NCBI GenBank assembly: GCA_001940705.1
Contig: MEHG01000006.1
Span: forward strand, 1-46,908
Direction of reading: 5' to 3'
DNA: 46,908 nt
Source of the DNA: Candidatus Thorarchaeota archaeon AB_25
Lineage (GTDB): Archaea; Asgardarchaeota; Thorarchaeia; Thorarchaeales; Thorarchaeaceae
Below the pieces are notes generated by a model, which ran no database searches, was not told where the DNA came from, and saw only the letters and a list, made by a program, of their open reading frames with translations. A program made the translations under genes and the position numbers. Each line of letters begins with the position of its first letter. Position 1 is the stretch's first letter. Shown here piece by piece: positions 1,990-37,878 of the stretch.

Positions 1990-2001
1990 GTGATAATCAA
2001 G

Positions 2002-3681: not shown

Positions 3682-3685
3682 TACG

Positions 3686-8059: not shown

Positions 8060-8060
8060 T

Positions 8061-9059: not shown

Positions 9060-12000
9060 AGACCTATCATGTGATCATAGCCCTACTTGTCGTCTGCGCA
9101 CTTGCAGGACTGCAACTCCAGACGACTGATACGGGTGTACAACCCGTTGCAATCACGAGTCCACAGGTTCAACAGGTTCCACACTCAATCGCAGAGATTG
9201 CACCGTTCGACACAGCCATTGTTTGGTCCACCACAGTGGGCAACCAGGTCGTAGATGTTGTTGTCGACAATTTCGATGCAGATGTGCGAGATGAGGTGGC
9301 AGTCATCGTTCAAAATGGTTCTTTATTCCTGTTCGATGATGACAGCTCACTGTTGTGGAAGCTGAAACTTGGCTCGACACCACATGCACTGGCCTCATTT
9401 GATGGCACAGCCGCCACCGGTCAGGAGATGCTCATAGGAACAGACTCTGGCATTGTTGTAGTCGGAGCTAATAAGGCAGTTCAGATGAACATGTCCCTCC
9501 CAGAGCCGGTTTATGCTGTTGCAGGTGGTAATTTCGATGCAGATGGACTTGAAGAGGTCGTTGTGGGCTGTGACGACTTCTACGTCTATGCTTTCGAGAT
9601 TGACACGACTCCAGAGTGGAGTTATTTAAGCAATGGCAGGGTGCGTTTGCTTGATGTTGCGGATATTGACTCTGACTCTCGAGCTGAAGTGGTTGTGGCC
9701 TCTGAGGGAAGGCGGTTCACCCTCTTGCAGGACACAGGCGCTATGCTGTTCGAGAAGACAAGCGCCACTGCTATCAATGTGGTCGCCATGGGAGACCTCA
9801 CTGCGGCTGCAAACTGGGATATTCTCTACGGTAGTAGCAATGGAACCCTAGCTGTCTGGTACGACACCGGAACGCTTGCTTATGGCCTAGACCTTGAGGA
9901 CAGTGTCACTTCCCTTGAGGTAGGTAATCTAGTTACAGGCGGTAGGCACGAGTTTGCTCTCGGGACAGATGCCAATCAACTTCGCGTCTATGACTCAGGT
10001 GGCGCATTGCTCTGGAACAAGACCCTAGGTGGTGTGCCCAATGAGATACTCTTCCCGAACGTTGGAGCGACAACCAATGCACAAGTCCTCGTTGGAATTC
10101 CCAACACGCTTAACACCTATAATGCAACAGGATGGCGTGTAAACCAACTCACTGCCAACGGTTTCACTGGTGCTCTTGCATTTGGAGACCTCGACAACTT
10201 TGGCGGCGACGAATATGCTTTTGGTACCAATTTCGGAGTAGTGTCATCCTATGGACGCGACTTTGACAAAGACCAACTCGCAGACGCTCGCGAGATCATC
10301 ATTGAGGGGACATTATACGACGACTCAGACTCGGACAACGACAATTTGAGTGATGGACAGGAAGTCCTGACCTACGATACCAATCCTCTTGCAGCTGATA
10401 CTGACGGAGACAAACTCTCAGACTTTGCAGAGGTCATCACCCATGGGACCGATCCCAACGAAGCGGACTCGGATTCAGACAATCTCACTGATTGGCAGGA
10501 GATCTACCTCGGGACCAATCCAAATCAGGCGGATACTGACGGAGATTCACTTACTGACTACGAAGAGAACAATGTGACTCTCACCCTTCCAACAGACCCA
10601 GATAGTGATTCTGATGACATCAATGATGCACAGGATGACAACGATGGGGATGGGCTCACTAACATCCAAGAGGTTCGTCTGTCCAAGACCGATCCCAATG
10701 ACGTCGACTCGGATGGAGATCTCATAACAGACTATTATGATGACCAGGACGCGGACAATCTTGCCAACTGGAAAGAGATACAGGTCGGCACTGGTTTATA
10801 CGACCCTGATAGCGATGATGACCTCCTGCTCGATGGATATGAAGTGAAGACAAGTAAGACCTCACCATTGAATGAAGATACAGATGGAGATTCGCTTACA
10901 GACTTTGAAGAAGTGATGATTGTCCACTCAGACCCACTCAAGGCGGATGGGGACGAGGATGGACTTTCAGACTATGACGAATATGTCATCTACGGTACCG
11001 GTGTGTTGGACAGTGACAGTGATGATGACACATTAAGTGATGGAGCAGAGGTCAATACCTACTTCACGGACCCGTTGAACAACGACACCGACTCTGACCT
11101 CATTTCAGATGGACTAGAGGTGAAGGTCTGGAAATCTGACCCCAACTCTGCGGACACTGACCTCGATAATCTCAACGACTATTTAGAATGTTACGTCTGG
11201 CACACAAACGTCACAAACAGTGATACAGACGGAGATACATTGGGAGACGGTCTGGAGGTTCTCACCTACGGCACAAATGCCTCTCTTGTAGACACGGACT
11301 TCGACCTAATTCGTGACCCTGATGAAGTCAAGTACCTTTCCAGTGGATGGGACCCCACGAATCCAAACACCTTCGATGCAGGCACGCTAGACGGAAACTG
11401 GGACTTTGACGGTGACCGTCTCACTAACTATCAGGAGATCTACCTGACACGGACGAATCCGACACTCATGGACTCGGGAGGACTACCTCTCACTGATGAC
11501 CTTGAGGATAGTGACCTTGACGGGTTGAACAACTACGATGAGTTATACGTGACCTTCACACATCCTAGGAGACCGGACACAGATGAGGACAAAGTAAAAG
11601 ATGGAGACGAGGTATTAATCCTGCTCACAGATCCCAACGATGAGGATAGCAACGATAATGGCATCACTGACTATGACGAGGACTTTGACGATGATGGGTT
11701 GAGTAATGGAATCGAGCTCTACATTACACAGACGCTACACAATGATAGTGACACGGATAATGACCTCATATCGGACTATTATGACGATGAAGATGGTGAC
11801 TCCCTCGAGAACTGGTTCGAGGTGGAGATGACCGGGACCGACCCACTCTACAACGACACGAACGATAACGGTGTCTTCGATTGGGAGGAGGACCCGGACA
11901 ACGATGAACTAACCAATCTAGAGGAACAGGAGAACGACTGTGACCCATTGGCTGCAGACACTGACTTAGACCAATTAACTGATGGCGAAGAAGTTCTCTA

Positions 12001-15000
12001 CACCCACACAGACCCTACTGACAGCGATGATGACGATGATGGGCTATTAGATGGACAGGACGACCAAGACAATGACGGTCTCACGAACCTTGAAGAACTG
12101 CGAACCTACGACACGAATGTCACCCTCTGGGACACTGATGGAGACCGAATCCGAGATGGGCTTGAGATTGATGTGGGTCTCAATGCCACCAACCCGGATA
12201 GTGATGATGATGGTTTGTTTGATGGATGGAACGATATTGTCCCCAATGGCATATACGAGCCTCATTTAGGCGAGCGGGGAGAGGATGTCAATGCGAACGG
12301 TGTTGTGAACGTTGGCGAAACTTCGCCCTTCGAAAAAGATAGTGATTTTGATGGTTTGGATGATGCTGAGGAGTACGTCTACGGCACATCCCCAATAAAT
12401 GAGGACTGTGACGAGGACGGTCTATTGGATGGAGAGGAAATTAACGACTACTTCACTAACCCTCTCAACAACGACACTGATTCAGACTTGCTATCAGACT
12501 GGGTAGAGGTTGAGCAGACTCTCACAGACCCTAACAACATGTGGTATAATGGGACCCACACAGATTACATGATTGACAGCGATGGCGATTCACTAACAAA
12601 TGGGGATGAGGTGTACATCTATGAGACAGACCCCGGAGATTTCGATAGTGACAACGATAATATCGGAGATGGAATGGAGGTACTCGTCTACCTCTCAGAC
12701 CCATTGTCAAATGATAGTGATGGTGATGGACTATTAGATAATGAGGAGCTATTCTACGGTACTGAGATCAATATACAGGACACTGATGGTGATCAACTTG
12801 ATGACTTCGTGGAGATCGAGTATCTGGGAACCAATCCCTTGCTACCATCCACATACATGAACGGCACTCTTGATGGAAACCTCGACCATGATGGTGATGG
12901 TCTAACCAATGCAGTGGAGATTTATGGATACCACTCAAACGCCACCTCTAAGGACAGTGATTTAGATGGCCTAGAAGACGGATTTGAGGTGTTTGTATCA
13001 GGTACATCACCTACTGACATGGATAGTGATAATGACCAGCTCAGTGACTATGACGAGTACTGGATCTATCACACGGACCCGAGCGGGAGTGATAGTGACT
13101 CGGATGGACTCAGTGATTATGTTGAGGTCTATGTTTCACTCACTTCACCCACTTCTTGGGACAGCGATGGAGACACATTATCTGATGGAGATGAATGGAA
13201 CACGTACGGGACTAACCCTAACTCCATCGATACAGATGATGACCTTCTCAGTGACAAGCTCGAGTTGGACATAGGCACAGATCCTCTACTGAATGATACA
13301 GACTCGGATACGCTTTCAGACTGGGAAGAGTGGGTTCTCTATGATACTGACCCAACAGAGGCAGACATCGACGAAGATGGATTAAATGATGCAGAGGAAC
13401 TCGAAAACGGTACTGATTGGGAGAACTGGGATAGTGACTTTGACACCATCAGTGACGGAGATGAAGTGAACATCTACGAAACCTCACCAATCAATGATGA
13501 TACAGATTCTGATAATTTAGCAGACGGAGATGAGCTGTTCAACAGCGGTACTGACCCACTTCTAGTGGACACAGATGGTGATACGATTCCTGATGACCTA
13601 GATGACCAGGATGCAGATGGTCTCACAAACGCAGATGAAATATACCTCTACGAAACCAACTGTACTCTGATTGACACAGACTTCGATATGCTATCAGATT
13701 TTGATGAGATATTTGTCTGGGACACCTCACCCAAACTATTTGATAGTGATGAGGATGGCCTCGGAGATTGGGACGAGCTCTTCTACTGGTCTAGCGACCC
13801 CAACGACAGAGACAGCGACGATGATGGTCTGGAAGACTCAGAGGAGGCCCTAACATGGCACACTCTCCTGAACAGCACAGATACTGACATGGATGGCGTA
13901 AGTGACTATGATGAGATTAAGGTCTTCGAGACCGATGCTTTGCACTGGGACACGGATTCGGACTCTATTTCTGATGGTGATGAGCTGTACGTATACAACA
14001 CATCACCCCTACGCAAAGATACTGACTCAGACAAACTTCTCGATGGACAGGAAATCAATGGTTTCTATATGACCTTCAACATCAGTGGTGTGATAGATAG
14101 TCGGTGGGTTTACACGAACCCAAGAGTGAGTGACACTGATCGAGATACGCTTTCAGATTTCGAAGAGGTGAATAGGACAGGGACAGACCCGACACTCTTC
14201 AGTACGCAAGGCAATACCATCTCTGATGCAGACTGGGACATAGACAACGATATGCTCACGAATGCTCAGGAGATTCGATTAACTAAAACCAATCCAAGAA
14301 TCTATGATAGTGATTCTGATGGCAAGTCAGATGGAGCAGATGATGAGGATAGAGACCTACTCACCAACTACTGGGAGTGTGTCCTGACTGAGACTGACCC
14401 GCGAGACCCGGACAGTGATGACAACGGAATCTCAGACTATAATGATGACGAGGATGGCGATACGCTGTCGAACGGTGAGGAGTGTAAGGACTACGGAACG
14501 GACCCACTAGAGAGAGACAGCGATTCTGATGGGCTAGATGATAACGAAGAGATTGAGGTCTGGGGAACAGACCCACTCAACAAAGACAGTGACTTCGATG
14601 GGCTTGAAGATGGACCAGAGGTCAATGATTGGGGAACCATGCCAGACTCTAATGACACAGATTTGGACTGGCTCTCAGACTGGGAAGAGGTGGTCCTAAC
14701 AGGCACTGACCCGACCACCAACATGACACACCCAGGCACACTTGACAGACTATGGGACAGCGATTCTGATGGGCTCACAAACTGGGACGAACTGAGGGTT
14801 TACTTCACACTGCCAAATGACCCTGACTTTGATAATGATGATCTCATTGATGGACTTGAGATCTCCTTGGGCACACAAATCAACGGGGTAGACAGTGACT
14901 CTGACCTTTTGACTGATGGACAGGAGTATCTGCTCTATGGTACAGACCCATTGTTACCAGACAGTGACGGAGATGAGCTTTCTGATTACGATGAGGTGAT

Positions 15001-15877
15001 GGTGTATGAAACTGACCCACTTGAGGAAGACAGCGACGGCGACACCATCAATGACCATGACGAGGTCTTCGGTGTGAATCCTCTGGGAATTGCGACAAAC
15101 CCACTGGAGGATGACGGGGACTTTGATGGACTCAATGACTATGAAGAACTCTTCACCTATGGTTCTAATCCTGCATCTCCAGACGGAGACTCAGATGGCC
15201 TCAGCGACTTCCTGGAGGTCACGGAGTATTCCACCCAACCGATGAACAATGACACGGACTCGGATATGCTCTCTGATGGTGCAGAGGTCAATGTCTATGG
15301 GACAAACCCACTACTGGAAGACACCGATGGTGACGGCATAAATGACTACAGGGAGGTCATAGTACTGGGTACTGACCCGAACAGAAGAGACAGTGACGGG
15401 GATGGCATAATGGATGGCCAAGACTTCCTACCGACGATTCACTGGATATTCCCGATAGCGGGACTCCTCGTGCTGGCGTTCGTGGGTGCAGTGGGCGTGA
15501 AACGGTTCAGAGACACCCACATGGGGGATGAGTTCGTGACCAAGGCAGAGCCTGCGAGCCTGGGCTTAGAGCCTGGCATGGACATTGCGGTGGAATACAA
15601 GATCCGGGACGGGCGCGTCATCTTCGGAGTGGTGGTGCGGAACGGTGCTGACAACCCGATGCAGAACGTGCAGGTGACACTGGGCGTACCGGACCTGACT
15701 GATACAATAAAGACAGAGAACCTAGGCACAGTGGATCCGGACACAGTATCAGTGGCTGAGATTGAGTTTGAGCTGCAGCCTGGTGCAGAGGGTGAGCTCG
15801 TAGGTATGATTGAGTATGACAGCATCGAGGGTGAGCACAAGGTAGTGAACCTGAAGCCCGTGAAGATTGTAGCTTAG
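9056..15877 (+). CDS. Giant surface protein: propeller head, calcium-binding TSP3-like repeats, membrane anchor
   Basis: The 2273-residue protein begins with a signal peptide (VIIALLVVCALAGL). Residues of about 50-400 form FG-GAP-like propeller blades with repeated D-x-D-x-D-x-x-E loops (for example NFDADGLEEVVVG). From about 402 to 2128 it is almost entirely a DSDGDGLSDGxE...YGTDPLxxDTD repeat, thrombospondin type 3-like, each unit carrying Asp-rich calcium loops. A membrane helix lies at about 2129-2150 (WIFPIAGLLVLAFVGAVGV), followed by a basic stop-transfer and a roughly 120-residue cytoplasmic beta-sandwich-like domain. Its ATG overlaps the stop of the ATPase gene, and AGGAGG precedes it. 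By family knowledge such repeats make stiff, calcium-stabilised rods, so an adhesin, receptor or stalk is likely. The tail suggests it communicates with the cell interior. Confidence 0.9.
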   Translation: MKTYHVIIALLVVCALAGLQLQTTDTGVQPVAITSPQVQQVPHSIAEIAPFDTAIVWSTTVGNQVVDVVVDNFDADVRDEVAVIVQNGSLFLFDDDSSLLWKLKLGSTPHALASFDGTAATGQEMLIGTDSGIVVVGANKAVQMNMSLPEPVYAVAGGNFDADGLEEVVVGCDDFYVYAFEIDTTPEWSYLSNGRVRLLDVADIDSDSRAEVVVASEGRRFTLLQDTGAMLFEKTSATAINVVAMGDLTAAANWDILYGSSNGTLAVWYDTGTLAYGLDLEDSVTSLEVGNLVTGGRHEFALGTDANQLRVYDSGGALLWNKTLGGVPNEILFPNVGATTNAQVLVGIPNTLNTYNATGWRVNQLTANGFTGALAFGDLDNFGGDEYAFGTNFGVVSSYGRDFDKDQLADAREIIIEGTLYDDSDSDNDNLSDGQEVLTYDTNPLAADTDGDKLSDFAEVITHGTDPNEADSDSDNLTDWQEIYLGTNPNQADTDGDSLTDYEENNVTLTLPTDPDSDSDDINDAQDDNDGDGLTNIQEVRLSKTDPNDVDSDGDLITDYYDDQDADNLANWKEIQVGTGLYDPDSDDDLLLDGYEVKTSKTSPLNEDTDGDSLTDFEEVMIVHSDPLKADGDEDGLSDYDEYVIYGTGVLDSDSDDDTLSDGAEVNTYFTDPLNNDTDSDLISDGLEVKVWKSDPNSADTDLDNLNDYLECYVWHTNVTNSDTDGDTLGDGLEVLTYGTNASLVDTDFDLIRDPDEVKYLSSGWDPTNPNTFDAGTLDGNWDFDGDRLTNYQEIYLTRTNPTLMDSGGLPLTDDLEDSDLDGLNNYDELYVTFTHPRRPDTDEDKVKDGDEVLILLTDPNDEDSNDNGITDYDEDFDDDGLSNGIELYITQTLHNDSDTDNDLISDYYDDEDGDSLENWFEVEMTGTDPLYNDTNDNGVFDWEEDPDNDELTNLEEQENDCDPLAADTDLDQLTDGEEVLYTHTDPTDSDDDDDGLLDGQDDQDNDGLTNLEELRTYDTNVTLWDTDGDRIRDGLEIDVGLNATNPDSDDDGLFDGWNDIVPNGIYEPHLGERGEDVNANGVVNVGETSPFEKDSDFDGLDDAEEYVYGTSPINEDCDEDGLLDGEEINDYFTNPLNNDTDSDLLSDWVEVEQTLTDPNNMWYNGTHTDYMIDSDGDSLTNGDEVYIYETDPGDFDSDNDNIGDGMEVLVYLSDPLSNDSDGDGLLDNEELFYGTEINIQDTDGDQLDDFVEIEYLGTNPLLPSTYMNGTLDGNLDHDGDGLTNAVEIYGYHSNATSKDSDLDGLEDGFEVFVSGTSPTDMDSDNDQLSDYDEYWIYHTDPSGSDSDSDGLSDYVEVYVSLTSPTSWDSDGDTLSDGDEWNTYGTNPNSIDTDDDLLSDKLELDIGTDPLLNDTDSDTLSDWEEWVLYDTDPTEADIDEDGLNDAEELENGTDWENWDSDFDTISDGDEVNIYETSPINDDTDSDNLADGDELFNSGTDPLLVDTDGDTIPDDLDDQDADGLTNADEIYLYETNCTLIDTDFDMLSDFDEIFVWDTSPKLFDSDEDGLGDWDELFYWSSDPNDRDSDDDGLEDSEEALTWHTLLNSTDTDMDGVSDYDEIKVFETDALHWDTDSDSISDGDELYVYNTSPLRKDTDSDKLLDGQEINGFYMTFNISGVIDSRWVYTNPRVSDTDRDTLSDFEEVNRTGTDPTLFSTQGNTISDADWDIDNDMLTNAQEIRLTKTNPRIYDSDSDGKSDGADDEDRDLLTNYWECVLTETDPRDPDSDDNGISDYNDDEDGDTLSNGEECKDYGTDPLERDSDSDGLDDNEEIEVWGTDPLNKDSDFDGLEDGPEVNDWGTMPDSNDTDLDWLSDWEEVVLTGTDPTTNMTHPGTLDRLWDSDSDGLTNWDELRVYFTLPNDPDFDNDDLIDGLEISLGTQINGVDSDSDLLTDGQEYLLYGTDPLLPDSDGDELSDYDEVMVYETDPLEEDSDGDTINDHDEVFGVNPLGIATNPLEDDGDFDGLNDYEELFTYGSNPASPDGDSDGLSDFLEVTEYSTQPMNNDTDSDMLSDGAEVNVYGTNPLLEDTDGDGINDYREVIVLGTDPNRRDSDGDGIMDGQDFLPTIHWIFPIAGLLVLAFVGAVGVKRFRDTHMGDEFVTKAEPASLGLEPGMDIAVEYKIRDGRVIFGVVVRNGADNPMQNVQVTLGVPDLTDTIKTENLGTVDPDTVSVAEIEFELQPGAEGELVGMIEYDSIEGEHKVVNLKPVKIVA
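10259..15420 (+). repeat. Long in-gene array of Asp-rich TSP3-like coding repeats
   Basis: Over about 5.1 kb the reading frame repeats a unit of mostly 19-27 codons with consensus D(S/T)D-x-DxLSDxxEV-x-x-YGT-DP-x-x-xD. The DNA copies have diverged, with different codons for the same residues, so the array is conserved at protein level and is not a recent nucleotide expansion. Shorter variants such as DDDGDGLTN interrupt the register at intervals. Long open frames on the opposite strand here are by-products of the biased codons and are not genes. Confidence 0.88.
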
Positions 15878-16790: not shown

Positions 16791-17993
16791 CTAGACTTCT
16801 CTAGTATCAGTGGTGTATGCACCCACTGACCGTGCAATCTCTTGGACCTCATTTGGGTGACCGAATAGAGCGCAGGGAGTGTCCTCGTTGGTGAGGAGGT
16901 GCTCATTCTGACGAATGGCTTCGAATAACGGACTTGCTAGCCCCTCTCTGAAGGAGGTATTGGAGAGATTGTGAGTTGCCAAATTAGATACTGGACAAGC
17001 CGTGAGGTCTCCCGAGGGAGTGACATGTGCGAATCCACGACCAGCAGAAACGCAACCGCCAAAATAGTCCTCATCTCCGGGCGAATGGATGACGTACAAT
17101 TTGTTACGTCGACGATATTCGAGGACTCTCGAACGAAACTCTTCACGCTCGGCAGGAGAAAGCATGAGCGTCTTATCATAGGATCCACAGGTGTCGCCAG
17201 TGAGGTTCTCGGCCATCACAGGGATGTATTCGATGAAGACACCCACAAGGATGCCGAGTTTGACATAGTGGTCTAAGTTCTTTTTCTGCATCCAGAATCT
17301 ATAGTTCTCATTAGTGATCGTAACGGAGATGCCGGTTGGGACACCACTGGACTTCAATCGTGTCAGGGTCTCAAGAGCTTGTTTGTGAACACCTTGTCCT
17401 CGACGGGAGTCAGTTGTTTCTTCACTACCCTCGACACTGACAATAACTGCCACATTCTTAGTGCTGCGTAGGCGCTTATGGTCAGTGCGAGTAAGTGCAG
17501 TACCATTGGTCAGGATGATAAAGAACCGGTCATTGAAGGACTCACATAACTCGAGCAAGCCACGGAACATGAAAGGCTCGCCTCCAGCTATGATGAAACC
17601 AAAAACACCCAGTTCACTTGCATCCTTGATGATGTCATACCACTGCGCCCAGTCAAGGGTCTTTCTCGCATCAGAACACTCAGTCCGTGGTCTGTTATCA
17701 AGTGTCCCTACTGCAGCAGCATAACATCCTGCGCAGCTAAGGTTGCATTGAGAGGTGATACTTAGGATCAGAAAGGGAGGTACTCTCAGTCCAGCCTCTT
17801 TGGCCTCACGTCTGAGCTTCTCGGTCTTCTTGTAGGACCGTGCGAGTCTAATACCTGCCCGGATATATCGGGGATTACGAAGCACCCAGGGAACGAAGAG
17901 GCGGGACATGTTAGGATCGAGTCCATCAAGGACCTTCTTCATCTGTCCTGGTGACTTAATTCTATTAGCGTGCTCTTTGACTGTTGTTAACAT
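16791..17993 (-). CDS. Radical SAM protein with C-terminal Cys-rich SPASM-like region
   Basis: The 400-residue protein carries the radical SAM cluster motif CNLSCAGC (CxxxCxxC) near residue 97, followed by a GGEPF motif and a SAM-barrel pattern (VAVIVSVEG, GISVTITNEN). The C-terminus has further Cys residues (FGGC, LTACPVS, TPCALFG) like a shortened SPASM/auxiliary cluster region, so it probably modifies a peptide or other large substrate. The ATG at 17993 is preferred. A strong minus-strand TATA (TTTATATAG, near 18044-18052) predicts a transcript starting around 18020, so the ATG at 18038 would lie upstream of it. It is divergent from a flavodoxin, a plausible electron donor, across a shared operator array. 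Its substrate is unknown. Confidence 0.85.
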   Translation of the reverse strand: MLTTVKEHANRIKSPGQMKKVLDGLDPNMSRLFVPWVLRNPRYIRAGIRLARSYKKTEKLRREAKEAGLRVPPFLILSITSQCNLSCAGCYAAAVGTLDNRPRTECSDARKTLDWAQWYDIIKDASELGVFGFIIAGGEPFMFRGLLELCESFNDRFFIILTNGTALTRTDHKRLRSTKNVAVIVSVEGSEETTDSRRGQGVHKQALETLTRLKSSGVPTGISVTITNENYRFWMQKKNLDHYVKLGILVGVFIEYIPVMAENLTGDTCGSYDKTLMLSPAEREEFRSRVLEYRRRNKLYVIHSPGDEDYFGGCVSAGRGFAHVTPSGDLTACPVSNLATHNLSNTSFREGLASPLFEAIRQNEHLLTNEDTPCALFGHPNEVQEIARSVGAYTTDTREV

Positions 17994-18041
17994 CTTACTT
18001 TCCCAACTTGGTAGCGGCGCGTATGTTATACTACACATCAA

Positions 18042-20717: not shown

Positions 20718-23700
20718 CTACTCTATCACTTCAGGTAGGTCCTTCAACAGTTCAACCGTGTCGACATTTTGGGCAATCACTATGTAGCTGTTCATACTCG
20801 TACTCTCGCCAGGCTTCAGAGCACGTCTTTCACGAATTCCAAAATTCTGTGCTTTCTCACCAAGAGTATCGAGATAGAGGAGATTATCCCACTTGTAGGC
20901 AGTGATGATGCCTAGAACAGTGCCATCAGATGCGCTCTCATAAGCACCCCATCCCTCTTTACCAGCAAATAGTTCAGCTTCCTGTGAGGTCGGCTCGTAG
21001 ACAATTCGTTTGCCGTCGCGAGTTGTATGGATTGTGTCCAAAACCTCACCATCAGGGGAGGGGATTCCTCTGTAGCCTACAGCAGGTCTCTTCCACTGGC
21101 TACTACTGTTGAGTGTAGTGAATTCCACACTCATGAGCGGAGTTCCAGGTAGAATGAGGTATCGGAAGGAGACTGTGACCCCCTTCAAACCGGGACTATG
21201 CTGAAGTACTGAGGTTGTCTTGTAACCTACCCAAGGTCCAACCCTTTCGTTAGAAATGGTCCAGGACTCCTTATGCAACGCGGATTCCCAGTCCCAGACG
21301 TCAAGATCAGCAATAATCGGGCTAAGACCACTAAACACTTTCTCCCACCAGATGAAAGGACCAACCTTTGGGAAGGTGTCATAGAATACACTTGGCTCAC
21401 CCAATTTATGAAATCTAACCAGCGTGCCAGAATGCTCTGGACAAGCAGCAATTGCATACCCACCCGTACTGAGCGAGTGAAGGGTAGTTTCCTCCTCCTC
21501 AGTCTTTGTTCTCTCAACTTTCAATGCAGATTCATAGACGACAGCTGTCAAAGGGGTCCTGAAGATTCGAGACTTTAACTGTATGACAATTTCACCATTC
21601 TTCCTGAACCAAGATCTATCATTAGTTGTGGTTATCTTTAAGGGGTACGAGAATGGCTTGTCTATCCCTATCTCTTTGACCTGCATCCTTAATTCTTTCT
21701 CACCATTAGCTAGAAGTCCATCCGGCATTTTTAGATGAATGGTAGCATCAACTGGGTCTTCGAATGTGATTCTCAAACGAAGTTCGTGATTGTTTGCCTT
21801 CGACCGGTCAACAATGATTGGATTCGGCACCTTTCTCAGCTGTTTGCTTGATCTAGGAGATATCTCAACCTCAAGATCTGACCGAATGTCATAGACCTCA
21901 GTGACTGGTTCTATGACTCCGTATAACTTTCTGTACAACGACCTAACCTTTCGCCAATCACCATCACCGAGGTAGAGTCTTAGAGGTGTCTTCTCAAATG
22001 ACTCACCGGGAGCAAGTGTTGGAAGACGGTACTCGATTCGTGGAACGGTCATTCCTCTTCGAAGTCTGATTTCTTCAACATGTTCTGGGTCCCAGATATA
22101 ACCTAGAAGAAACCTCTCATGATGGCGATATGAAGCACACCATGTTTCGTGGTAGTCATTAGTCGATTTTGGTATCTGTGGATACCCAGACCAGTCCACA
22201 GACCCAAGGTCATAGAGTTTGCCCCGAAGTGGGATGATTGCGTGGTCGAAGATACCACCAAACCAACCTGCGAGCCGCATGCCAAGATCATTCAAATCCG
22301 AGTCGCCTATGTTCTCATATCTTACAATTACATGAATCAGGTCAATTCCACTCTGGATTCGATAGGTGACATGGTACCGTAACCCAGGACGTTCTGTTGA
22401 ATCGGCGGTCATTCGGACGTCTGCATAATCCCCCCTGCTTTCTAGTTGAATATCTGGTTCCAAACGACCCCACTCACCTCCTTCAGAGGGGAACGGATAA
22501 CCCACCTCCAAGCCCATCACACGCCAACCACCTACTATTCGCGACATTCCTTTGTGCTCAAATCTTGTGAATCCCATAGTGGGTAAATCAAGCATCAAGC
22601 CACGGATGTTCTCTGTTTCAAGGACTATTCTATTGTCCAAACCCCTGTAAGCAACCGCACCGGTTACTCCCAATACGGGAATGTTGAAGTCTTTTCGTTG
22701 AACACAGGTCCGTGTCCCTTCATCTTCCAGATAGATCTCAAGACCAATTGAGAGTATGTCACCCACATCATTTTCAAGTGAGATCATAACAGGTTCTTCC
22801 ACAACCTCTTCCGGTGCAAGATTGAACTCTATCTTTTGGGAATCAACCACTACATCCTTTGGGGGTTTTAATAAAATCTCACCTTTGAGGTCCATTGATG
22901 TGTTATTGAAAACGCCAAGTCCAACAGGTTCTGATCCACCTGGTCTAAAACAAGGATGAAATGGTCCTGCACGTACAATGACGGGAGTTGTTGGGATGAG
23001 TCCGCTATACAGGGAAATCTCTTGGTTTCCGAGTCTGAGCTTCCACTCTACTTGAGTTGGGACTTTCTCATCAGCATTGGTTTCTCGATCAATAGAGCGA
23101 GCACCAGTAGCGATCGAATAGACACCACTGACGTTGATGCTTCCACCTGCTTTTATCAAACCAGAGGAGTCCTCTTTGAGTCGAGCAGAGAAATATTTCG
23201 AAGGATCTAGTTCTATGGAGTAGGATAGGTCATCTTCGGACCCATTTTCGATTTTCAGTTCCACAGGAGATTCCCTAAATCCTATGTAACCAACATGGTT
23301 CTTGGGTTGAACCCTAGCAGAAAGAGTCTGGCCTTCAAATGTCATCCTAAAGGCACAGATGCCCTTTGCTTCTCTATCAACGGTCACGTCAAGAGAATCG
23401 CCACCCTCGCCTTCGAAATGATACTTGAAGACTCCAATGTTGTCCTCCTCGATATCATCAGTTTCCTGTAGAATCTCACGTTTGAAGGAGTCATACCAGT
23501 CATACTTCTCAAAAAAGGGTTGAAACAACTTGTTGCCGAGAATTCCAGGAATGTGTGACTCCATTAAAACTCTGGTTGCTGGAACCCAGTTGTACCCGGT
23601 TCTCTTGTAGAGTGGAAGAGCCTTCAGGTTTCCAGCCCAGGTGTGAAGATCGATGCGGCGTTTTCCAGCCTTTGCGGCAGTTTCTGCAGCCTCAATGAGG

Positions 23701-24023
23701 AGTGCTTTTCCAAAACCTTGCCCTTGATAGTGGGGATTCACACCTAGGAGACCTACATATGCTCCTTCATCATCCCGATTAGAATTACATACGTTGCAGT
23801 AACCTACGACCTTGTCATTTTTGTATGCAACAATCACACGGATGTCCTTGTTCTTCTTACGTCCATCAAAGACTCGCTCCGCTGTTAGGATTCTCCCCTC
23901 ATTGAATCCACCAGGCCAACTGTCTGAGTCGTCAAAGGTGTTGAAACACGCGGCTACTCTAGCGGAGTCTTCCATAGTCAGCTGGAAATCACGTACCTTA
24001 CCTTGTGTATGCTTGTCAGTCAT
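20718..24023 (-). CDS. GNAT N-acetyltransferase fused to a large beta-rich domain
   Basis: Residues of about 10-165 form a GNAT domain with the acetyl-CoA loop QGQGFGKA (about 100-107), preceded by strand VGLLGVNP. The remaining 900 or so residues look like consecutive beta-sandwich domains: an immunoglobulin-like region around 200-450, then a segment with YHVTYRIQSGIDLIHVIVRYENIGDSD and similar strands that recalls galactose-mutarotase-like or glycoside-hydrolase accessory folds. No signal peptide is present, so it is probably cytoplasmic. The length (1101 residues) far exceeds normal GNATs of about 150-180. It may act on a carbohydrate or a glycan-bearing substrate, but that is inference. 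The ATG follows GAGGAGAC at suitable spacing, and a TATA-like TTATTAAC lies further upstream. Confidence 0.82.
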   Translation of the reverse strand: MTDKHTQGKVRDFQLTMEDSARVAACFNTFDDSDSWPGGFNEGRILTAERVFDGRKKNKDIRVIVAYKNDKVVGYCNVCNSNRDDEGAYVGLLGVNPHYQGQGFGKALLIEAAETAAKAGKRRIDLHTWAGNLKALPLYKRTGYNWVPATRVLMESHIPGILGNKLFQPFFEKYDWYDSFKREILQETDDIEEDNIGVFKYHFEGEGGDSLDVTVDREAKGICAFRMTFEGQTLSARVQPKNHVGYIGFRESPVELKIENGSEDDLSYSIELDPSKYFSARLKEDSSGLIKAGGSINVSGVYSIATGARSIDRETNADEKVPTQVEWKLRLGNQEISLYSGLIPTTPVIVRAGPFHPCFRPGGSEPVGLGVFNNTSMDLKGEILLKPPKDVVVDSQKIEFNLAPEEVVEEPVMISLENDVGDILSIGLEIYLEDEGTRTCVQRKDFNIPVLGVTGAVAYRGLDNRIVLETENIRGLMLDLPTMGFTRFEHKGMSRIVGGWRVMGLEVGYPFPSEGGEWGRLEPDIQLESRGDYADVRMTADSTERPGLRYHVTYRIQSGIDLIHVIVRYENIGDSDLNDLGMRLAGWFGGIFDHAIIPLRGKLYDLGSVDWSGYPQIPKSTNDYHETWCASYRHHERFLLGYIWDPEHVEEIRLRRGMTVPRIEYRLPTLAPGESFEKTPLRLYLGDGDWRKVRSLYRKLYGVIEPVTEVYDIRSDLEVEISPRSSKQLRKVPNPIIVDRSKANNHELRLRITFEDPVDATIHLKMPDGLLANGEKELRMQVKEIGIDKPFSYPLKITTTNDRSWFRKNGEIVIQLKSRIFRTPLTAVVYESALKVERTKTEEEETTLHSLSTGGYAIAACPEHSGTLVRFHKLGEPSVFYDTFPKVGPFIWWEKVFSGLSPIIADLDVWDWESALHKESWTISNERVGPWVGYKTTSVLQHSPGLKGVTVSFRYLILPGTPLMSVEFTTLNSSSQWKRPAVGYRGIPSPDGEVLDTIHTTRDGKRIVYEPTSQEAELFAGKEGWGAYESASDGTVLGIITAYKWDNLLYLDTLGEKAQNFGIRERRALKPGESTSMNSYIVIAQNVDTVELLKDLPEVIE

Positions 24024-34061: not shown

Positions 34062-34122
34062 GTGAATCCAGAAGCCTTTTCATTCACGAATTATAGTATT
34101 TCAATATTGGAGATGACTAGTG

Positions 34123-34542
34123 ATGGGTGACGAACTATTAACATACCCTTCAGACGAGTGGGTTGCACTATACATGGAACTCCTGAATAAGAATGACCGC
34201 TACGAAGATGCCGCCAAGACTTGGGAGGGCGACTTCATCTTCGAAATCACTGCAGATGGAGAGATTGTAGAGGAAAATATTCGATTCTACATGGATCTCT
34301 GGCACGGAAAATGTAGAGAGGCAAGGATGGCAGAACCTGGTGACACTGCAGAGTTCACTTACTCGGGACCCTACAAGAACTGGAAAGCTCTTTTTGCGGG
34401 CAAGATTGACCCAATCAAGGGAATTATGGCTCGAAAGTTCAAGCTTGATGGTGACATGGGTAAGGTCATGCGGTATACAAAGGCAGCCCTAGAACTTGTG
34501 GCCACAACCAGACAGGTTCCCACAAAATACCTGGATGAATAA
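34123..34542 (+). CDS. SCP2-like sterol/lipid-transfer domain protein
   Basis: A 139-residue protein with an SCP2-type fold pattern: an amphipathic helix DEWVALYMELLNKNDRYEDAAKTWEGDF, strands IFEITADGEIVEENIRFYMDLWHGKCREARM, a D-x-x-EFTYSGPYKNWKALFAGKIDPIKGIMARKFKLDGDMGKVMRY block (a segment like this is the family's recognisable C-terminal part) and a closing helix. SCP2 domains bind lipids or other apolar molecules in the cytoplasm. The ATG at 34123 is chosen because GGAGATGA precedes it; a GTG three bases upstream is possible. It probably heads an operon with the radical SAM/SPASM gene 44 bases downstream. A lipid-binding accessory or anaerobic-sterol-like role would be inference. Confidence 0.8.
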   Translation: MGDELLTYPSDEWVALYMELLNKNDRYEDAAKTWEGDFIFEITADGEIVEENIRFYMDLWHGKCREARMAEPGDTAEFTYSGPYKNWKALFAGKIDPIKGIMARKFKLDGDMGKVMRYTKAALELVATTRQVPTKYLDE

Positions 34543-34586
34543 CCTGAAGTAGAACGAACTCCTCATTCTTGGAAGGAGGCACATTA

Positions 34587-35639
34587 TTGCCATGGAGGAG
34601 AGGACGTAAATCAAAGAAATGGCCAGGACCAGGTTGCGCAGTCTGGGAAATAACACTAGCATGTAATTTGAATTGCATTCATTGTGGTTCTGCAGCAGGA
34701 AGGAAACGTGACGATGAACTGTCAACTGAGGAGGCCCTCCAACTTTGTGATGACCTCAATGGTATTGGATGTAAGGGAGTCGCACTCATGGGTGGTGAAC
34801 CCCTACTCCGACCAGATTGGGTCAACCTCTCGGAAAGGATACATGATTTGGGAATGGAACTCTCAATCATAACAAATGGATGGCTTGGACAAAATGATGA
34901 TGTCACTCAACAGATAGTTGACTTATCTCCAGAATGTGTGTCTGTGAGTCTTGATGGTGGAGAGGCTTCAACACATGATATGATAAGGGGTGTTTCAGGC
35001 TCGTTCGATCGTGCGACCAAATCTATTGAGAGGTTTGCACAACTAGGTCTTCCAACCACTGTTATAACAACGGTCCACAAGCTGAATTTCAAGGATTTGA
35101 CAAAGATTCGTGAGTTTCTGAAAGGGAAAGGAGTGGCATGGCAGATACAAATGGCAACACCGCATGGAAGACTTGAGCGAAAGCATGTGTTGTCCCAAGA
35201 TGAGTTCTACTCAGTCGCATTGTTCATGGCCGCAACTCGGAAGACATTATCAAAAGAGCTGATGGTAGCTGGAGCTCATGATATGGGGTACTTCTCAACG
35301 ATTCTTCCTGAACTTCAAGTTGGTGGTTGGCAGGGTTGTCAAGCAGGCATGGGGACCTTAGGAATTCAGAGTAATGGCAACATCACTGGATGCTTGGCAC
35401 TTCAGGATGATTTTATTGAAGGTAATATTCGAAACCGTCCTCTCAAAGAGATATGGAATGATGAATCCTCGTTCAGGTACTCGCGGTATGTAAAGAGGTC
35501 GGATATGAAAGCACATTGTGCTAGTTGTGAGTTTGCGAGTATTTGTGGGGGCGGATGCACTGCTGTTTCTGTATCTATGACCAAAGGCATCCATCAAGAT
35601 CCGTATTGCCTTCGCTTCATTGAGCAATCAATGAAGTAA
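34587..35639 (+). CDS. Radical SAM/SPASM domain protein
   Basis: A 350-residue enzyme. The radical SAM motif CNLNCIHC is at about residues 25-32, followed by GGEPLLRP, then the barrel with VSLDGGEASTHDMIRG. The C-terminal SPASM-type region carries Cys at GWQGC, ITGCLAL, CASCEFASICGGGC and PYC, enough for two auxiliary [4Fe-4S] clusters, with the family linker GNIRNRPLKEIWN. SPASM enzymes modify ribosomal peptides or proteins (PqqE, AlbA and anaerobic sulfatase maturases are known examples). The TTG at 34587 has GGAAGGAGG at seven bases and is preferred over the TTG at 34569. Two paralogous small membrane proteins follow directly and are candidate substrates. Confidence 0.88.
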   Translation: MPWRRGRKSKKWPGPGCAVWEITLACNLNCIHCGSAAGRKRDDELSTEEALQLCDDLNGIGCKGVALMGGEPLLRPDWVNLSERIHDLGMELSIITNGWLGQNDDVTQQIVDLSPECVSVSLDGGEASTHDMIRGVSGSFDRATKSIERFAQLGLPTTVITTVHKLNFKDLTKIREFLKGKGVAWQIQMATPHGRLERKHVLSQDEFYSVALFMAATRKTLSKELMVAGAHDMGYFSTILPELQVGGWQGCQAGMGTLGIQSNGNITGCLALQDDFIEGNIRNRPLKEIWNDESSFRYSRYVKRSDMKAHCASCEFASICGGGCTAVSVSMTKGIHQDPYCLRFIEQSMK

Positions 35640-35663
35640 CCAAAGCGGAATTCAAAGAACTTA

Positions 35664-36116
35664 TTGCAAGAAAATGAGAGTATTGGATGGGTGAAGTTGT
35701 TGAGAAGGAGTGGAGTAGGAAGAATTGATGTTGCATACTGGAAAATTCGTCCATACCTTCCTTCAAAGCTACTGTCAAAACTTGAATCATTGATGCCATT
35801 TAGTACTCCAGAAGAAAAACAACTCAAGAAGCTAAGGATACTGGGAGAAGGAATAGGATTGAGTAGTAAGGAGGTGTCAGCTGCATATAGCCCTCCTCTT
35901 AATCTGACCCACTGGAGGTCTCGACTGACCCCCCTCTCAGCATGCGTTATGATACTTGTAATCTTCATTGGGGGTTACTTGATCATTGCTTTCGTTGCTC
36001 TCGACAATCCCAATTACTGGCCATCAACAGAAACGTATCGCTTTGGCTCACTTTATGGAACAATCAACCCCCAGGATTTTGATTCAGATGTGTTCACCAT
36101 GGATGTGATAACATGA
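35664..36116 (+). CDS. Single-pass membrane protein A with conserved C-terminal tail
   Basis: About 150 residues if it starts at the TTG at 35664; a GTG at 35691 would give about 141 and matches the paralogue's start better. A soluble N-terminal part (about 85 residues, YWKI-x-x-YLPSKL, then EKQLKKLRILGEGIGLSSKEVSAAY) is followed by THWRSRLT, one membrane helix (about residues 92-114) and a 36-residue tail. The tail ends with YGTINPQDFDSDVF. The positive-inside rule puts the tail outside. The paralogue at 36113 matches throughout, with the C-terminal YGTI-x-PQDF among the best-conserved parts. It follows a radical SAM/SPASM gene and may be its substrate. I recognise no family. Confidence 0.65.
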   Translation: MQENESIGWVKLLRRSGVGRIDVAYWKIRPYLPSKLLSKLESLMPFSTPEEKQLKKLRILGEGIGLSSKEVSAAYSPPLNLTHWRSRLTPLSACVMILVIFIGGYLIIAFVALDNPNYWPSTETYRFGSLYGTINPQDFDSDVFTMDVIT

Positions 36117-36520
36117 GATTGTTCAGTCTACAAACAATTTGGTCTTTTGGATTCTTTAAATCCGGGTATTGGAAGATCCATTCCTATCTTCCATCATCTC
36201 TTAGAATAAAGTTGGATGGTCTAATTCTACGTACAAGTGCAGATAAGAATCAACTCAAGAAACTTGAGTTGTTAGGGGAGAAGATTGGTCTAAATGAGAA
36301 AGAGGTAGTAGCAGCCTATAACCCTCCTTTTAATATGACTCACTGGAGGTCTCGATTGACCCTCTTCACAACTTGTGTCCTGATTCTAGCTGTTTTTGTG
36401 GTGAGTTTTTTGCTTTTCACTCTTGGTACTATCAATAATCCCCCATCAACATATGCGTGGGGTACTCGATATGGGACAATCAAGCCTCAGGATTTCAATC
36501 AGCGACACTATAGCTCGTAA
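36113..36520 (+). CDS. Single-pass membrane protein B, tandem paralogue of A
   Basis: A 135-residue protein starting at an ATG that overlaps the TGA of gene A by four bases (ATGA), so the two are coupled. It shares with A the blocks YWKI-x-x-YLPS, LKKL-x-x-LGE-x-IGL-x-x-KEV-x-AAY-x-PP, THWRSRLT, one membrane helix (about 82-105) and the tail PPST-x-x-(W/Y)-x-x-x-YGTI-x-PQDF, ending NQRHYSS. The membrane helix is less conserved than the tail and the THWRSRLT block. No signal peptide precedes the soluble part. The gene is followed 13 bases later by a methyltransferase-TPR gene. Possible roles are precursor of a modified peptide or a paired membrane sensor. Confidence 0.7.
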   Translation: MRLFSLQTIWSFGFFKSGYWKIHSYLPSSLRIKLDGLILRTSADKNQLKKLELLGEKIGLNEKEVVAAYNPPFNMTHWRSRLTLFTTCVLILAVFVVSFLLFTLGTINNPPSTYAWGTRYGTIKPQDFNQRHYSS

Positions 36521-36533
36521 TTGGTGAACACAG

Positions 36534-37835
36534 TTGAGGCTCAATATAGGATGCGGACTTGAATACAAGAAGGACTACATCAATATTGATGCTTTTGACA
36601 AGACTGTTGCAGACCAAGTGATGTCAGCGCTTGATCTTGATTTTGAAGATAACACATTCTCGCAGGTCGACTGCATACAAGTACTCGAGCATCTTGGTGC
36701 AGCGAAATCGATCTATTCGTTGGCGGAGGTATTTCGTGTCATCAAACCTGAGGGATTGTTTACCATTGAGACCCCAGATCTGATGAGTTCATTCAAGAAC
36801 TTTCTCAAAGGAAATGAAGACCAACGAAAACAGTTGATGAACTGGATATATGGTCTTGATACACCGGGTATGTCGCACAAGTATGGATTTCCAGAAGAAC
36901 TCCTTGAACGAATGCTTCTCGAAACTGGATTCACTGACATTACAATTACATCTTTGGGTACAAAATCATCTTACCCATCCCTCCGTGCGACCTGCAGAAA
37001 ACCAGATTCAAAGGTTCATCAATTCTTCAGTCATTTCAGGAAAAGACTCGTCTGGACCAATATCGTTGATCTAGACAATCAGGTTGATGTGATAGAAAAG
37101 GAAGCAATTCTCCAAGACCTTATGCGAGTTGTCTTGAATTCCAAGAATAGTAGTCAGCATCTCAAAGGGGTGCTACAAACAACTTCAACAAGTTGTCCTA
37201 AGATAGGTCAACTATACTTAGAAATGGCAATCAGTAACAACTTACTCTCAGACAAAGAAGCAAGGGCTTATCTCAACGTCTTCAAGGAGTTAGTTTCTCT
37301 TCGACTAACCGATGTGATGATACATCTCTTTCAAGAAATGCCAATAGTACCAGGCCATCAGGCCGAATCCATCGATACTGTCAAGTCTATGTTTGATCAG
37401 TCAGTAAGAAAACTCCTCAACGGAGACCAAACAGTCGTTGATTACATTAGAAAGACATCAGAAAAGATTGATGACGAAATTCAGACAGATCTATTCTCTA
37501 ATACCATCTTGGAGATGATTTCATCTACACAACTTGCATTAGGTTCTAAGGAGTTCTCCAAGACCCGATTTGACAACGCAATTGAGTATTATGACAAGGC
37601 AAGACGATTCAATCGGGATAGTATATTGGCATACTGGAATCTTGCTCGATTGCAGACTCTCCAAGACATGAAAGAACAGGCAAGACGTAGCTATAGGACG
37701 ACAAAAGATCTTCTAAAGTTACATCATCCGAAAATACAGAGGGTTCTGTGCAAGAAAATTGATGATGAAATTGAATACATCGCAAAAGGGAGTAGAGAAA
37801 AAATTGACAATCCAGTCCTTTCGCTGTTTCGATAA
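36534..37835 (+). CDS. SAM-dependent methyltransferase fused to TPR-containing region
   Basis: A 433-residue protein. Residues 1-150 are a class I methyltransferase opening directly with motif I (RLNIGCGLEYKKDYINIDAFD), then a DFEDNTFSQVDCIQVLEHL segment and EVFRVIKPEGLFTIETPDL, the methyltransf_11/glycan-cluster style. About 160-330 is helical without recognised motifs. About 340-400 looks like one or two TPR units (AIEYYDKARRFNRDSILAYWNLARLQTL). The start is a TTG at 36534 with GGTGA six bases upstream. It is the last gene after the radical SAM/SPASM and paired membrane proteins. If they work together it could add a methyl group to the modified protein, but this is inference. The TPR end may hold the partner. 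Confidence 0.8.
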   Translation: MRLNIGCGLEYKKDYINIDAFDKTVADQVMSALDLDFEDNTFSQVDCIQVLEHLGAAKSIYSLAEVFRVIKPEGLFTIETPDLMSSFKNFLKGNEDQRKQLMNWIYGLDTPGMSHKYGFPEELLERMLLETGFTDITITSLGTKSSYPSLRATCRKPDSKVHQFFSHFRKRLVWTNIVDLDNQVDVIEKEAILQDLMRVVLNSKNSSQHLKGVLQTTSTSCPKIGQLYLEMAISNNLLSDKEARAYLNVFKELVSLRLTDVMIHLFQEMPIVPGHQAESIDTVKSMFDQSVRKLLNGDQTVVDYIRKTSEKIDDEIQTDLFSNTILEMISSTQLALGSKEFSKTRFDNAIEYYDKARRFNRDSILAYWNLARLQTLQDMKEQARRSYRTTKDLLKLHHPKIQRVLCKKIDDEIEYIAKGSREKIDNPVLSLFR

Positions 37836-37878
37836 CAAGGGTGGTAACTTAAATCGCACCGAATAAATTCTAAGAGAC

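What the first reader, a model, noticed from the sequence alone, without database searches (positions are those of the whole stretch)
34123..37835. Radical SAM/SPASM enzyme followed by two tandem membrane proteins with a conserved C-terminal tail: possible new modification system
The SPASM-type enzyme is followed by two paralogous single-pass proteins that share the external tail motif YGTI-x-PQDF and THWRSRLT, more conserved than their membrane helices, then a methyltransferase-TPR protein, with an SCP2-like protein ahead. A maturase next to small paralogous substrates with a conserved C-terminal segment resembles RiPP gene clusters, but here the candidates are membrane proteins with an N-terminal domain of about 85 residues. 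No such system is known to me.
Basis: partly seen in the sequence, partly recalled or inferred. Interest (0 to 1): 0.8.

Follow-up and report, generated by a model that had tools for sequence, protein, structure and literature searches.

The report
Enzyme that rewrites membrane-protein tails
A small gene set in Asgard archaea and several bacterial groups pairs a radical enzyme with membrane-anchored or exported proteins that carry the same short tyrosine-containing tail, so the enzyme very probably modifies that tail, most likely by the rare tyrosine-excising chemistry of the splicease enzymes.

Summary
In this Thorarchaeota genome a radical SAM/SPASM gene (34569-35639), two paralogous single-pass proteins (35664-36116, 36113-36520) and a methyltransferase-TPR gene (36534-37835) form a cassette. 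THWRSRLT lies on the other side of the membrane helix and is not conserved. SCP2 is not part: seven congeners without the cassette have SCP2 next to the following gene. The tail family tracks the enzyme in 228 Asgard and 248 Elusimicrobiota genomes; every apparent exception is a contig end or a frameshifted gene. The tail Y-x5-Y-x6-DF recurs in Thor- and Lokiarchaeal proteins and Elusimicrobial lipoproteins, and as a variant on Kunitz-domain proteins of other bacteria. Other Asgard substrates share only X-Y-[GSND]. The enzyme lies beside the PlpX splicease and DUF1843-associated families, whose substrates carry X-Y-G or a variant. Best reading: an enzyme that modifies the second tail tyrosine before export (about 0.9 that it modifies the tail), by tyramine excision to an alpha-keto-beta-amino residue (about 0.5), giving a surface protein with a reactive, perhaps protease-inhibiting tail (speculative). 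It is not a PlpX-family member by NCBI's cutoff. Novelty: new variant; a 2022 survey of spliceases could not be read.

The parts
34569..35639 (+). Radical SAM/SPASM enzyme, 356 aa, CxxxCxxCGS cluster motif; proposed tail-modifying enzyme (start codon uncertain: most relatives align only from about residue 10-20)
   Evidence: Pfam PF04055 6e-26 and PF13186 8e-10; nearest NCBIfam models TIGR04103 (218.9 bits, cutoff 725) and TIGR03913 (201.6, cutoff 592); AlphaFold model pLDDT 87, best PDB matches peptide maturases PqqE, SuiB, SkfB; tree
35664..36116 (+). Substrate-like protein A, 150 aa: N-terminal helical part, one transmembrane helix, C-terminal tail
35820..35885 (+). Leader-like helix-turn-helix of protein A (QLKKLRILGEGIGLSSKEVSAA), possible enzyme-recognition element
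   Evidence: G and GL invariant or nearly so in the Thorarchaeal and Lokiarchaeal alignments; same element in the bacterial alignments
36036..36080 (+). Conserved tail of protein A, YRFGSLYGTINPQDF; proposed modification site is the second Tyr (L-Y-G)
36113..36520 (+). Substrate-like protein B, 135 aa, paralogue of A (stop/start overlap with A, 4 bases)
   Evidence: model
36248..36313 (+). Leader-like helix-turn-helix of protein B (NQLKKLELLGEKIGLNEKEVVA)
   Evidence: (helices 45-57 and 62-69)
36362..36436 (+). Transmembrane helix of protein B (residues 84-108)
36452..36496 (+). Conserved tail of protein B, YAWGTRYGTIKPQDF; proposed modification site R-Y-G
36534..37835 (+). Class I SAM-dependent methyltransferase with C-terminal TPR-like part, 433 aa; accessory modifying enzyme
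   Evidence: Pfam PF13489/PF08241 and a weak TPR_11 hit; homologue beside the enzyme in all Asgard loci not cut by a contig end and in the Elusimicrobia and Geobacter loci examined; no homologue found in three Kunitz-type genomes

Best explanation
The cassette is a post-translational modification system for the extracytoplasmic tails of membrane-anchored proteins. A and B are made with an N-terminal leader-like helix-turn-helix (LGxxxGLxxxE) that presents the nascent protein to the cytosolic radical SAM/SPASM enzyme. The enzyme acts on the second, invariant tyrosine of the C-terminal tail (X-Y-G in this genome) before the tail crosses the membrane. Shown here: the enzyme and the tail family co-occur and adjoin one another, and the tail is conserved in two domains of life. 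Inferred: that the enzyme modifies the tail, at this Tyr, and that the helix-turn-helix is what it recognises. The most likely chemistry is that of the PlpX spliceases: excision of a tyramine unit and rejoining of the chain, leaving an internal alpha-keto-beta-amino residue (about -135 Da). The methyltransferase then methylates the product or a neighbouring group (unknown). The result is a cell-surface protein with an electrophilic ketoamide tail. A protease-inhibiting role is suggested by bacterial substrates that carry a tail of this kind on a Kunitz protease-inhibitor domain, but this is speculative. Confidence by step: enzyme modifies the tail 0.9; tyrosine is the reacting residue 0.75; tyramine excision 0.5; protease inhibition 0.25.
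For: (1) Co-occurrence: Thorarchaeia 15 of 16 enzyme-bearing genomes have the tail family, 0 of 31 others; Elusimicrobiota 26 of 26; Fisher p 2e-11 and 3e-33, not corrected for kinship. Apparent exceptions are contig ends (G032, G262, G280, G442, G448, G450) or a frameshifted enzyme gene (G299). (2) Tail: Y-x5-Y-x6-DF in 46 of 47 proteins of three alignments against 0.0002 in shuffles (many rows were chosen with the tail in view). A Lokiarchaeal profile built without Thorarchaeal sequences finds the window protein, E 4e-8; profile-profile E 1e-12 Thor-Loki and 3e-10 Loki-Elusimicrobia. (3) In 20 multi-membrane-span Asgard substrates picked by adjacency and aligned without reference to the motif, the C-terminal Tyr is 20/20 and the next residue is Gly in 16. 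(4) The enzyme groups with TIGR04103/TIGR03913-type enzymes against the AhbD/NirJ group (97 SH-aLRT), with shared W191, Q194, G240, W254, G265 and CxxCGS that the AhbD/NirJ group lacks. (5) A Nostoc TIGR04103 enzyme adjoins a Nif11 precursor ending SIALYGLPPELF, and TIGR03913-type enzymes adjoin DUF1843 peptides with MLYGG, KPYGV, MYAAS, QPYGA. PlpX acts at X-Y-G, in a short tag, without the leader. (6) The model resembles the peptide maturases PqqE, SuiB, SkfB. (7) Kunitz domain between membrane segment and tail in L052 and L055 (1e-13) and weaker in L053; Lys at P1 by inspection.
Against: No chemistry was measured. The enzyme scores far below the TIGR04103 and TIGR03913 cutoffs. The residue after Tyr is mostly Ser in Lokiarchaea and Tyr or Phe in Elusimicrobia, so X-Y-G is not strict. 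No PlpY-like partner gene lies in the window cassette and the model shows no added peptide-binding domain. A first tail aromatic six residues upstream is nearly as invariant and unexplained; multi-span substrates also have an invariant Tyr-Pro far from the tail. The signature residues were compared only with the AhbD/NirJ group, not with all other maturases. The mapping of PlpX's InterPro family to TIGR04103 is from memory.
Confidence: 0.5

Rival explanations
1. Same enzyme-substrate relation, different chemistry at the tail: a carbon-carbon or carbon-oxygen crosslink, such as a three-residue cyclophane at Y-x-[TS] or a bond between the two conserved tyrosines, instead of tyramine excision.
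For: The third residue of Y-x-[TSAGV] is always small in the DF-tail family; two aromatic residues with fixed spacing are conserved; several SPASM enzymes make such bonds (established knowledge of GrrM, FxsB and XyeB type maturases; some are named).
Against: The cyclophane-forming GrrM, FxsB and YhhB families are not among the 25 best NCBIfam matches of this enzyme, whose top two are TIGR04103 and TIGR03913; across the wider clade only X-Y is common and the third residue varies; the first aromatic residue is Phe in L053 and is far from the tail in multi-span substrates.
Confidence: 0.33
2. The tail is modified and then cut off, releasing a short secreted peptide (a conventional RiPP or signal); the membrane part is only a carrier. 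This is compatible with either chemistry.
For: Short conserved C-terminal segment after a variable carrier, in tandem copies, resembles RiPP core peptides.
Against: No protease or dedicated exporter recurs in the cassette; bacterial carriers are lipoproteins or Kunitz-domain proteins, which suggests that the whole protein is the product.
Confidence: 0.2
3. The tail is a docking or sorting motif that a separate machinery reads, and the radical SAM enzyme has an unrelated small-molecule substrate, for example a heme or cofactor.
For: The closest well-described neighbouring group in the relatives found is the AhbD/NirJ heme enzymes.
Against: Co-occurrence with no clean exception in two phyla and conserved adjacency; the two radical SAM groups are separated at 97 SH-aLRT; related enzymes adjoin annotated peptide precursors.
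Confidence: 0.05
4. The SCP2 protein is a lipid-handling partner that cooperates with the enzyme on the membrane proteins.
For: SCP2 lies 26 bases upstream on the same strand in the window and upstream of the enzyme in congeners that have the cassette.
Against: Seven congeners without the cassette have SCP2 followed by NMO; no SCP2 was detected at the cassette in other Thorarchaeal lineages (L039-L046) or in bacteria, nor in other Asgard loci.
Confidence: 0.03

Closest known systems
PlpX/PlpY splicease system (spliceotides; Pleurocapsa; described in PMC10533398 and PMC11002830)
   Same: SPASM radical SAM enzyme; X-Y-G substrate motif (LYG and RYG in the window); shared clade and active-site residues with a Nostoc TIGR04103 enzyme whose neighbour carries SIALYGLPPELF; a short tag suffices for PlpX
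   Different: Below the TIGR04103 cutoff; no PlpY-like partner; no Nif11 or NHLP leader; substrate is a membrane-anchored protein with a C-terminal tail; methyltransferase present; the tail is about 15 residues with its own consensus
TIGR03913 GDL-motif radical SAM maturase with tandem DUF1843 peptides (Azospirillum, Aureibacter)
   Same: Enzyme of the same wider clade beside three tandem small paralogous proteins, most carrying X-Y-[GA]
   Different: DUF1843 peptides are small, show no membrane segment and have the motif at the N-terminus; no matching methyltransferase
Nif11/NHLP leader RiPP clusters
   Same: Leader region plus short modified core; tandem precursors
   Different: No Pfam or NCBIfam leader family matches A or B
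Mycofactocin maturase MftC
   Same: SPASM enzyme acting on Tyr of a precursor tail (established knowledge; a TIGR03962 hit of 147.8 bits)
   Different: MftC uses a C-terminal Val-Tyr; here Tyr is followed by 8 or more residues in the DF-tail family and usually by several residues in the YGVY family

Membership tests
PlpX-type splicease (TIGR04103, nif11-class maturase 3) | Radical SAM enzyme scores above the curated cutoff (725 bits) | tested here: not met
   218.9 bits for the window enzyme against 853.1 for the Nostoc enzyme
PlpX-type splicease (TIGR04103, nif11-class maturase 3) | X-Y-G motif in the substrate | tested here: met
   L-Y-G and R-Y-G in the two window tails; Thorarchaeal relatives YG or YA; Lokiarchaea mostly YS, Elusimicrobia mostly YY or YF
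PlpX-type splicease (TIGR04103, nif11-class maturase 3) | Nif11-like or nitrile-hydratase-like leader on the precursor | tested here: not met
   No Pfam or NCBIfam match for A or B
PlpX-type splicease (TIGR04103, nif11-class maturase 3) | RRE-type partner protein (PlpY) | tested here: not met
   No ORF of that kind between SCP2 and NMO in the window; an RRE hidden in the leader-like part or the methyltransferase was not excluded
PlpX-type splicease (TIGR04103, nif11-class maturase 3) | Excision of tyramine (C8H9NO) giving an alpha-keto-beta-amino residue | not testable with these tools
   Needs expression and mass spectrometry
TIGR03913 GDL-motif maturase | Score above cutoff (591.75 bits) and DUF1843 peptides alongside | tested here: not met
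   201.6 bits; A and B match no Pfam family
AhbD/NirJ heme-biosynthesis radical SAM enzymes | Placement with AhbD/NirJ and score above cutoff (500 bits) | tested here: not met
   168.4 bits for AhbD; separate side of a 97 SH-aLRT branch; clade residues differ
SPASM-domain peptide/protein maturases (broad class) | CxxxCxxC cluster motif, SPASM cysteines, overall fold of known maturases | tested here: met
   Invariant C32, C36, C39 and C257, C275, C317, C320, C326, C347; Pfam SPASM; fold matches PqqE, SuiB, SkfB
RiPP-like precursor (broad class) | Conserved leader-like element plus short conserved C-terminal segment, genetically linked to a maturase | tested here: met
   proteolytic release not tested

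The most novel reading that the evidence does not exclude
A cross-domain system in which a splicease-related radical SAM enzyme rewrites the backbone of C-terminal tails on membrane proteins, lipoproteins and Kunitz-type protease inhibitors, in Asgard archaea and several bacterial groups, to make cell-surface proteins with a built-in reactive ketoamide. It would be a protein-level use of this chemistry (not a peptide natural product) in archaea, with a methyltransferase as a second modifying step.
Probability: 0.35. Interest if true: 0.88.

Novelty: new variant of a known kind. Interest (0 to 1): 0.74.

Why it matters
If right, Asgard archaea, the closest known prokaryotic relatives of eukaryotes, modify their surface proteins with one of the strangest known backbone edits, and a tail of the same kind is used by distant bacteria on protease inhibitors. 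It gives a concrete, testable substrate set (94 tails listed) for enzymes whose natural protein targets are little known, a candidate short tag for protein labelling, and a function hypothesis for small membrane proteins that match no named family.

Tried and rejected
Coincidental adjacency: rejected by co-occurrence in two phyla. SCP2, PHP and NMO as components: rejected by the empty site in congeners. THWRSRLT as a tail motif: rejected by position and lack of conservation. Known named families for the enzyme: none above cutoff. Heme-type enzyme: rejected by tree and residues. Neighbours of more distant relatives (L056-L062) gave no clear precursors. Papers by Scott 2022 and Richter 2024 on spliceases are not held, so prior description could not be checked.
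Full report
What is in the window. The window comes from a 2.86 Mb draft genome whose closest named relatives are Candidatus Thorarchaeota genomes. On the + strand lie PHP (33405), SCP2 (34120-34542), a radical SAM/SPASM gene (34569-35639), two small genes A (35664-36116) and B (36113-36520), a methyltransferase-TPR gene (36534-37835), then a nitronate monooxygenase-like gene NMO, an iron alcohol dehydrogenase and an aldehyde ferredoxin oxidoreductase. A and B are paralogues, 49% identical, with one membrane helix each (B modelled), and match no Pfam or NCBIfam family.

THWRSRLT precedes the membrane helix and is not conserved in other Thorarchaea; what is conserved is a helix-turn-helix LGxxxGLxxxE before the helix and a tail after it. 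Over 22 Thorarchaeal homologues the mean information is 3.36 bits in the tail, 2.37 in the helix-turn-helix and 1.93 in the membrane helix. SCP2 is not a component: seven congeners without the cassette have SCP2 next to NMO (G018, G022, G023, G024, G027, G028, G029), most with PHP before it, so the cassette is a gain or loss at that site. One genome (G019) has PHP-SCP2 on both sides of the cassette, the downstream SCP2 split into two frames.

Link between enzyme and tail proteins. In 47 Thorarchaeia genomes the tail family is present in 15 and the enzyme in 16; the 15 are the same, and in the sixteenth the enzyme runs off a contig end. In 248 Elusimicrobiota genomes the enzyme is in 26 and all 26 have a tail-family protein; two further genomes with a strong hit have the locus cut by a contig end; four hits near E 0.004 are taken as noise. 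In 228 Asgard genomes the enzyme is in 56. A Lokiarchaeal tail-protein profile hits 41 genomes, 38 of which are among the 56; the other three have a contig end (G442, G448) or a frameshifted enzyme gene (G299). Fisher tests give p of 2e-11 and 3e-33, not corrected for relatedness. Linkage is usual but not universal: in one Elusimicrobial genome (G048) the only tail protein lies on another contig, and one precursor (L047) has lost its tail.

The tail across two domains of life. Ninety-four tails collected by pattern share Y-x-x-G-[TS]-x-Y-[GASYF]-[TSAG]-[IV]-x-x-x-D-F with little variation. Spacing Y-x5-Y-x6-DF holds in 46 of 47 proteins of three full-length alignments, against a shuffled rate of 0.0002; many of those rows were chosen with the tail in view, so independent support matters. 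A Lokiarchaeal profile with no Thorarchaeal sequence finds window protein B at E 4e-8. Profile comparison gives E 1e-12 (Thor-Loki) and 3e-10 (Loki-Elusimicrobia); Thor-Elusimicrobia matches only in the helix-turn-helix, 4e-7. Carriers differ: one membrane helix in Thor- and Lokiarchaea; a lipoprotein-like signal in Elusimicrobia; a Kunitz inhibitor domain between signal and tail in Geobacter and Syntrophus (E 1e-13) and, more weakly, in a Nitrospirota genome, with a related cysteine pattern in Smithellaceae. By inspection the residue at the inhibitory P1 position is Lys in all four.

Another set of Asgard loci (L187, L188, L191-L197, L199) has the same enzyme and methyltransferase but different small proteins. 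Twenty multi-span proteins, chosen by adjacency, have an invariant C-terminal Tyr followed by Gly in 16 (Ser, Asn or Asp otherwise), then [VTI][YF], and an invariant Tyr-Pro in an earlier loop. In L191 three tiny proteins without a membrane segment end in YGVY plus two to four residues. What all substrate classes share is X-Y followed usually by a small residue.

Which enzyme family. The nearest NCBIfam models are TIGR04103 (218.9 bits, cutoff 725) and TIGR03913 (201.6, cutoff 592). In a 71-row tree the window clade, the other Asgard enzymes and a group holding a true TIGR04103 enzyme (Nostoc, 853 bits) and TIGR03913-type enzymes lie on one side of a branch with 97 SH-aLRT, against AhbD/NirJ enzymes; deeper branches within that side are weakly supported (83-88). 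That side shares CxxCGS, W191, Q194, G240, W254 and G265 (window numbering), which the AhbD/NirJ group lacks (its printed numbers are seven higher). Beside the Nostoc enzyme lies a Nif11 precursor ending SIALYGLPPELF; beside the Azospirillum and Aureibacter enzymes lie three DUF1843 peptides each, most with X-Y-G or X-Y-A. Published work states that PlpX, with its RRE partner PlpY, excises tyramine at X-Y-G, that its natural sites are MYG and LYG, and that a ten-residue tag without leader suffices (PMC10533398, PMC11002830). That PlpX's InterPro family corresponds to TIGR04103 is my recollection.

How it most likely works. Shown: cassette, co-occurrence, conserved leader-like and tail elements, clade. 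Inferred: the enzyme acts on the second tail Tyr in the cytosol before export (0.75); the reaction is tyramine excision (0.5); the methyltransferase acts on the product. The methyltransferase accompanies the enzyme in every Asgard locus not cut by a contig end and in the Elusimicrobia and Geobacter loci examined, but no homologue was found in three Kunitz-type genomes, so it is not essential to the core reaction. By charge the tail lies outside. A surface ketoamide could inhibit proteases, as a paper says of spliceotide products (PMC11117315), and the Kunitz carriers fit that; this is a hypothesis only.

Novelty. Searches of the held library for splicease, spliceotide, tyramine splicing, Asgard RiPPs and Thorarchaeota radical SAM found no description of this tail or these loci in the titles, abstracts and passages seen. 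[quoted passage not shown] I therefore rate it a new variant of a known kind.

Noticed in passing
window 34543-37878 and L206, L211, L212, L214, L216-L220: The cassette is a gain or loss at a fixed site between SCP2 and NMO in this genus; G019 has PHP-SCP2 copies on both sides with the downstream SCP2 split into two frames.
   Followed up: partly
L052:5430-5963, L053:5577-5981, L055:5556-5984, L118:1501-1905: Bacterial tail proteins carry a Kunitz/BPTI-like domain between signal segment and tail, with Lys at the P1 position by inspection; rare in bacteria to my knowledge.
   Followed up: partly
L187, L188, L192-L197, L199: Multi-membrane-span Asgard substrates end in YGVY-type tails and have an invariant Tyr-Pro in an earlier loop; the role of the second invariant Tyr is unexplained.
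   Followed up: partly
L191:5021-5534 (- strand): Three tiny proteins (46-65 aa) without a membrane segment, GYP[FY] near the start and YGVY near the end, between enzyme and methyltransferase.
   Followed up: no
L053:8871-10453 and L054:3953-5510: A second radical SAM gene with a short peptide (QYGARDYTVVAASDF in L053) lies near the first cassette; its own best NCBIfam hits in L053 include ranthipeptide and geopeptide maturases, below cutoff.
   Followed up: no
L047:7771-8061: Elusimicrobial precursor whose tail has been lost, apparently to a repeat-like insertion, while enzyme and methyltransferase remain.
   Followed up: no
G281 (two places) and L183/L184 (G409): Genomes with two enzyme copies each have two sets of tail proteins.
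   Followed up: no
window 808-15877: ABC transporter genes, a 1457-aa subtilase and a 2273-aa protein with a TSP3 repeat hit in a row; no link to the cassette tested.
   Followed up: no
window 16791-18041 (- strand): A second radical SAM gene (416 aa) without a detected SPASM domain.
   Followed up: no
window 20718-24023 (- strand): A 1101-aa protein with an N-terminal GNAT acetyltransferase domain and no other Pfam match.
   Followed up: no
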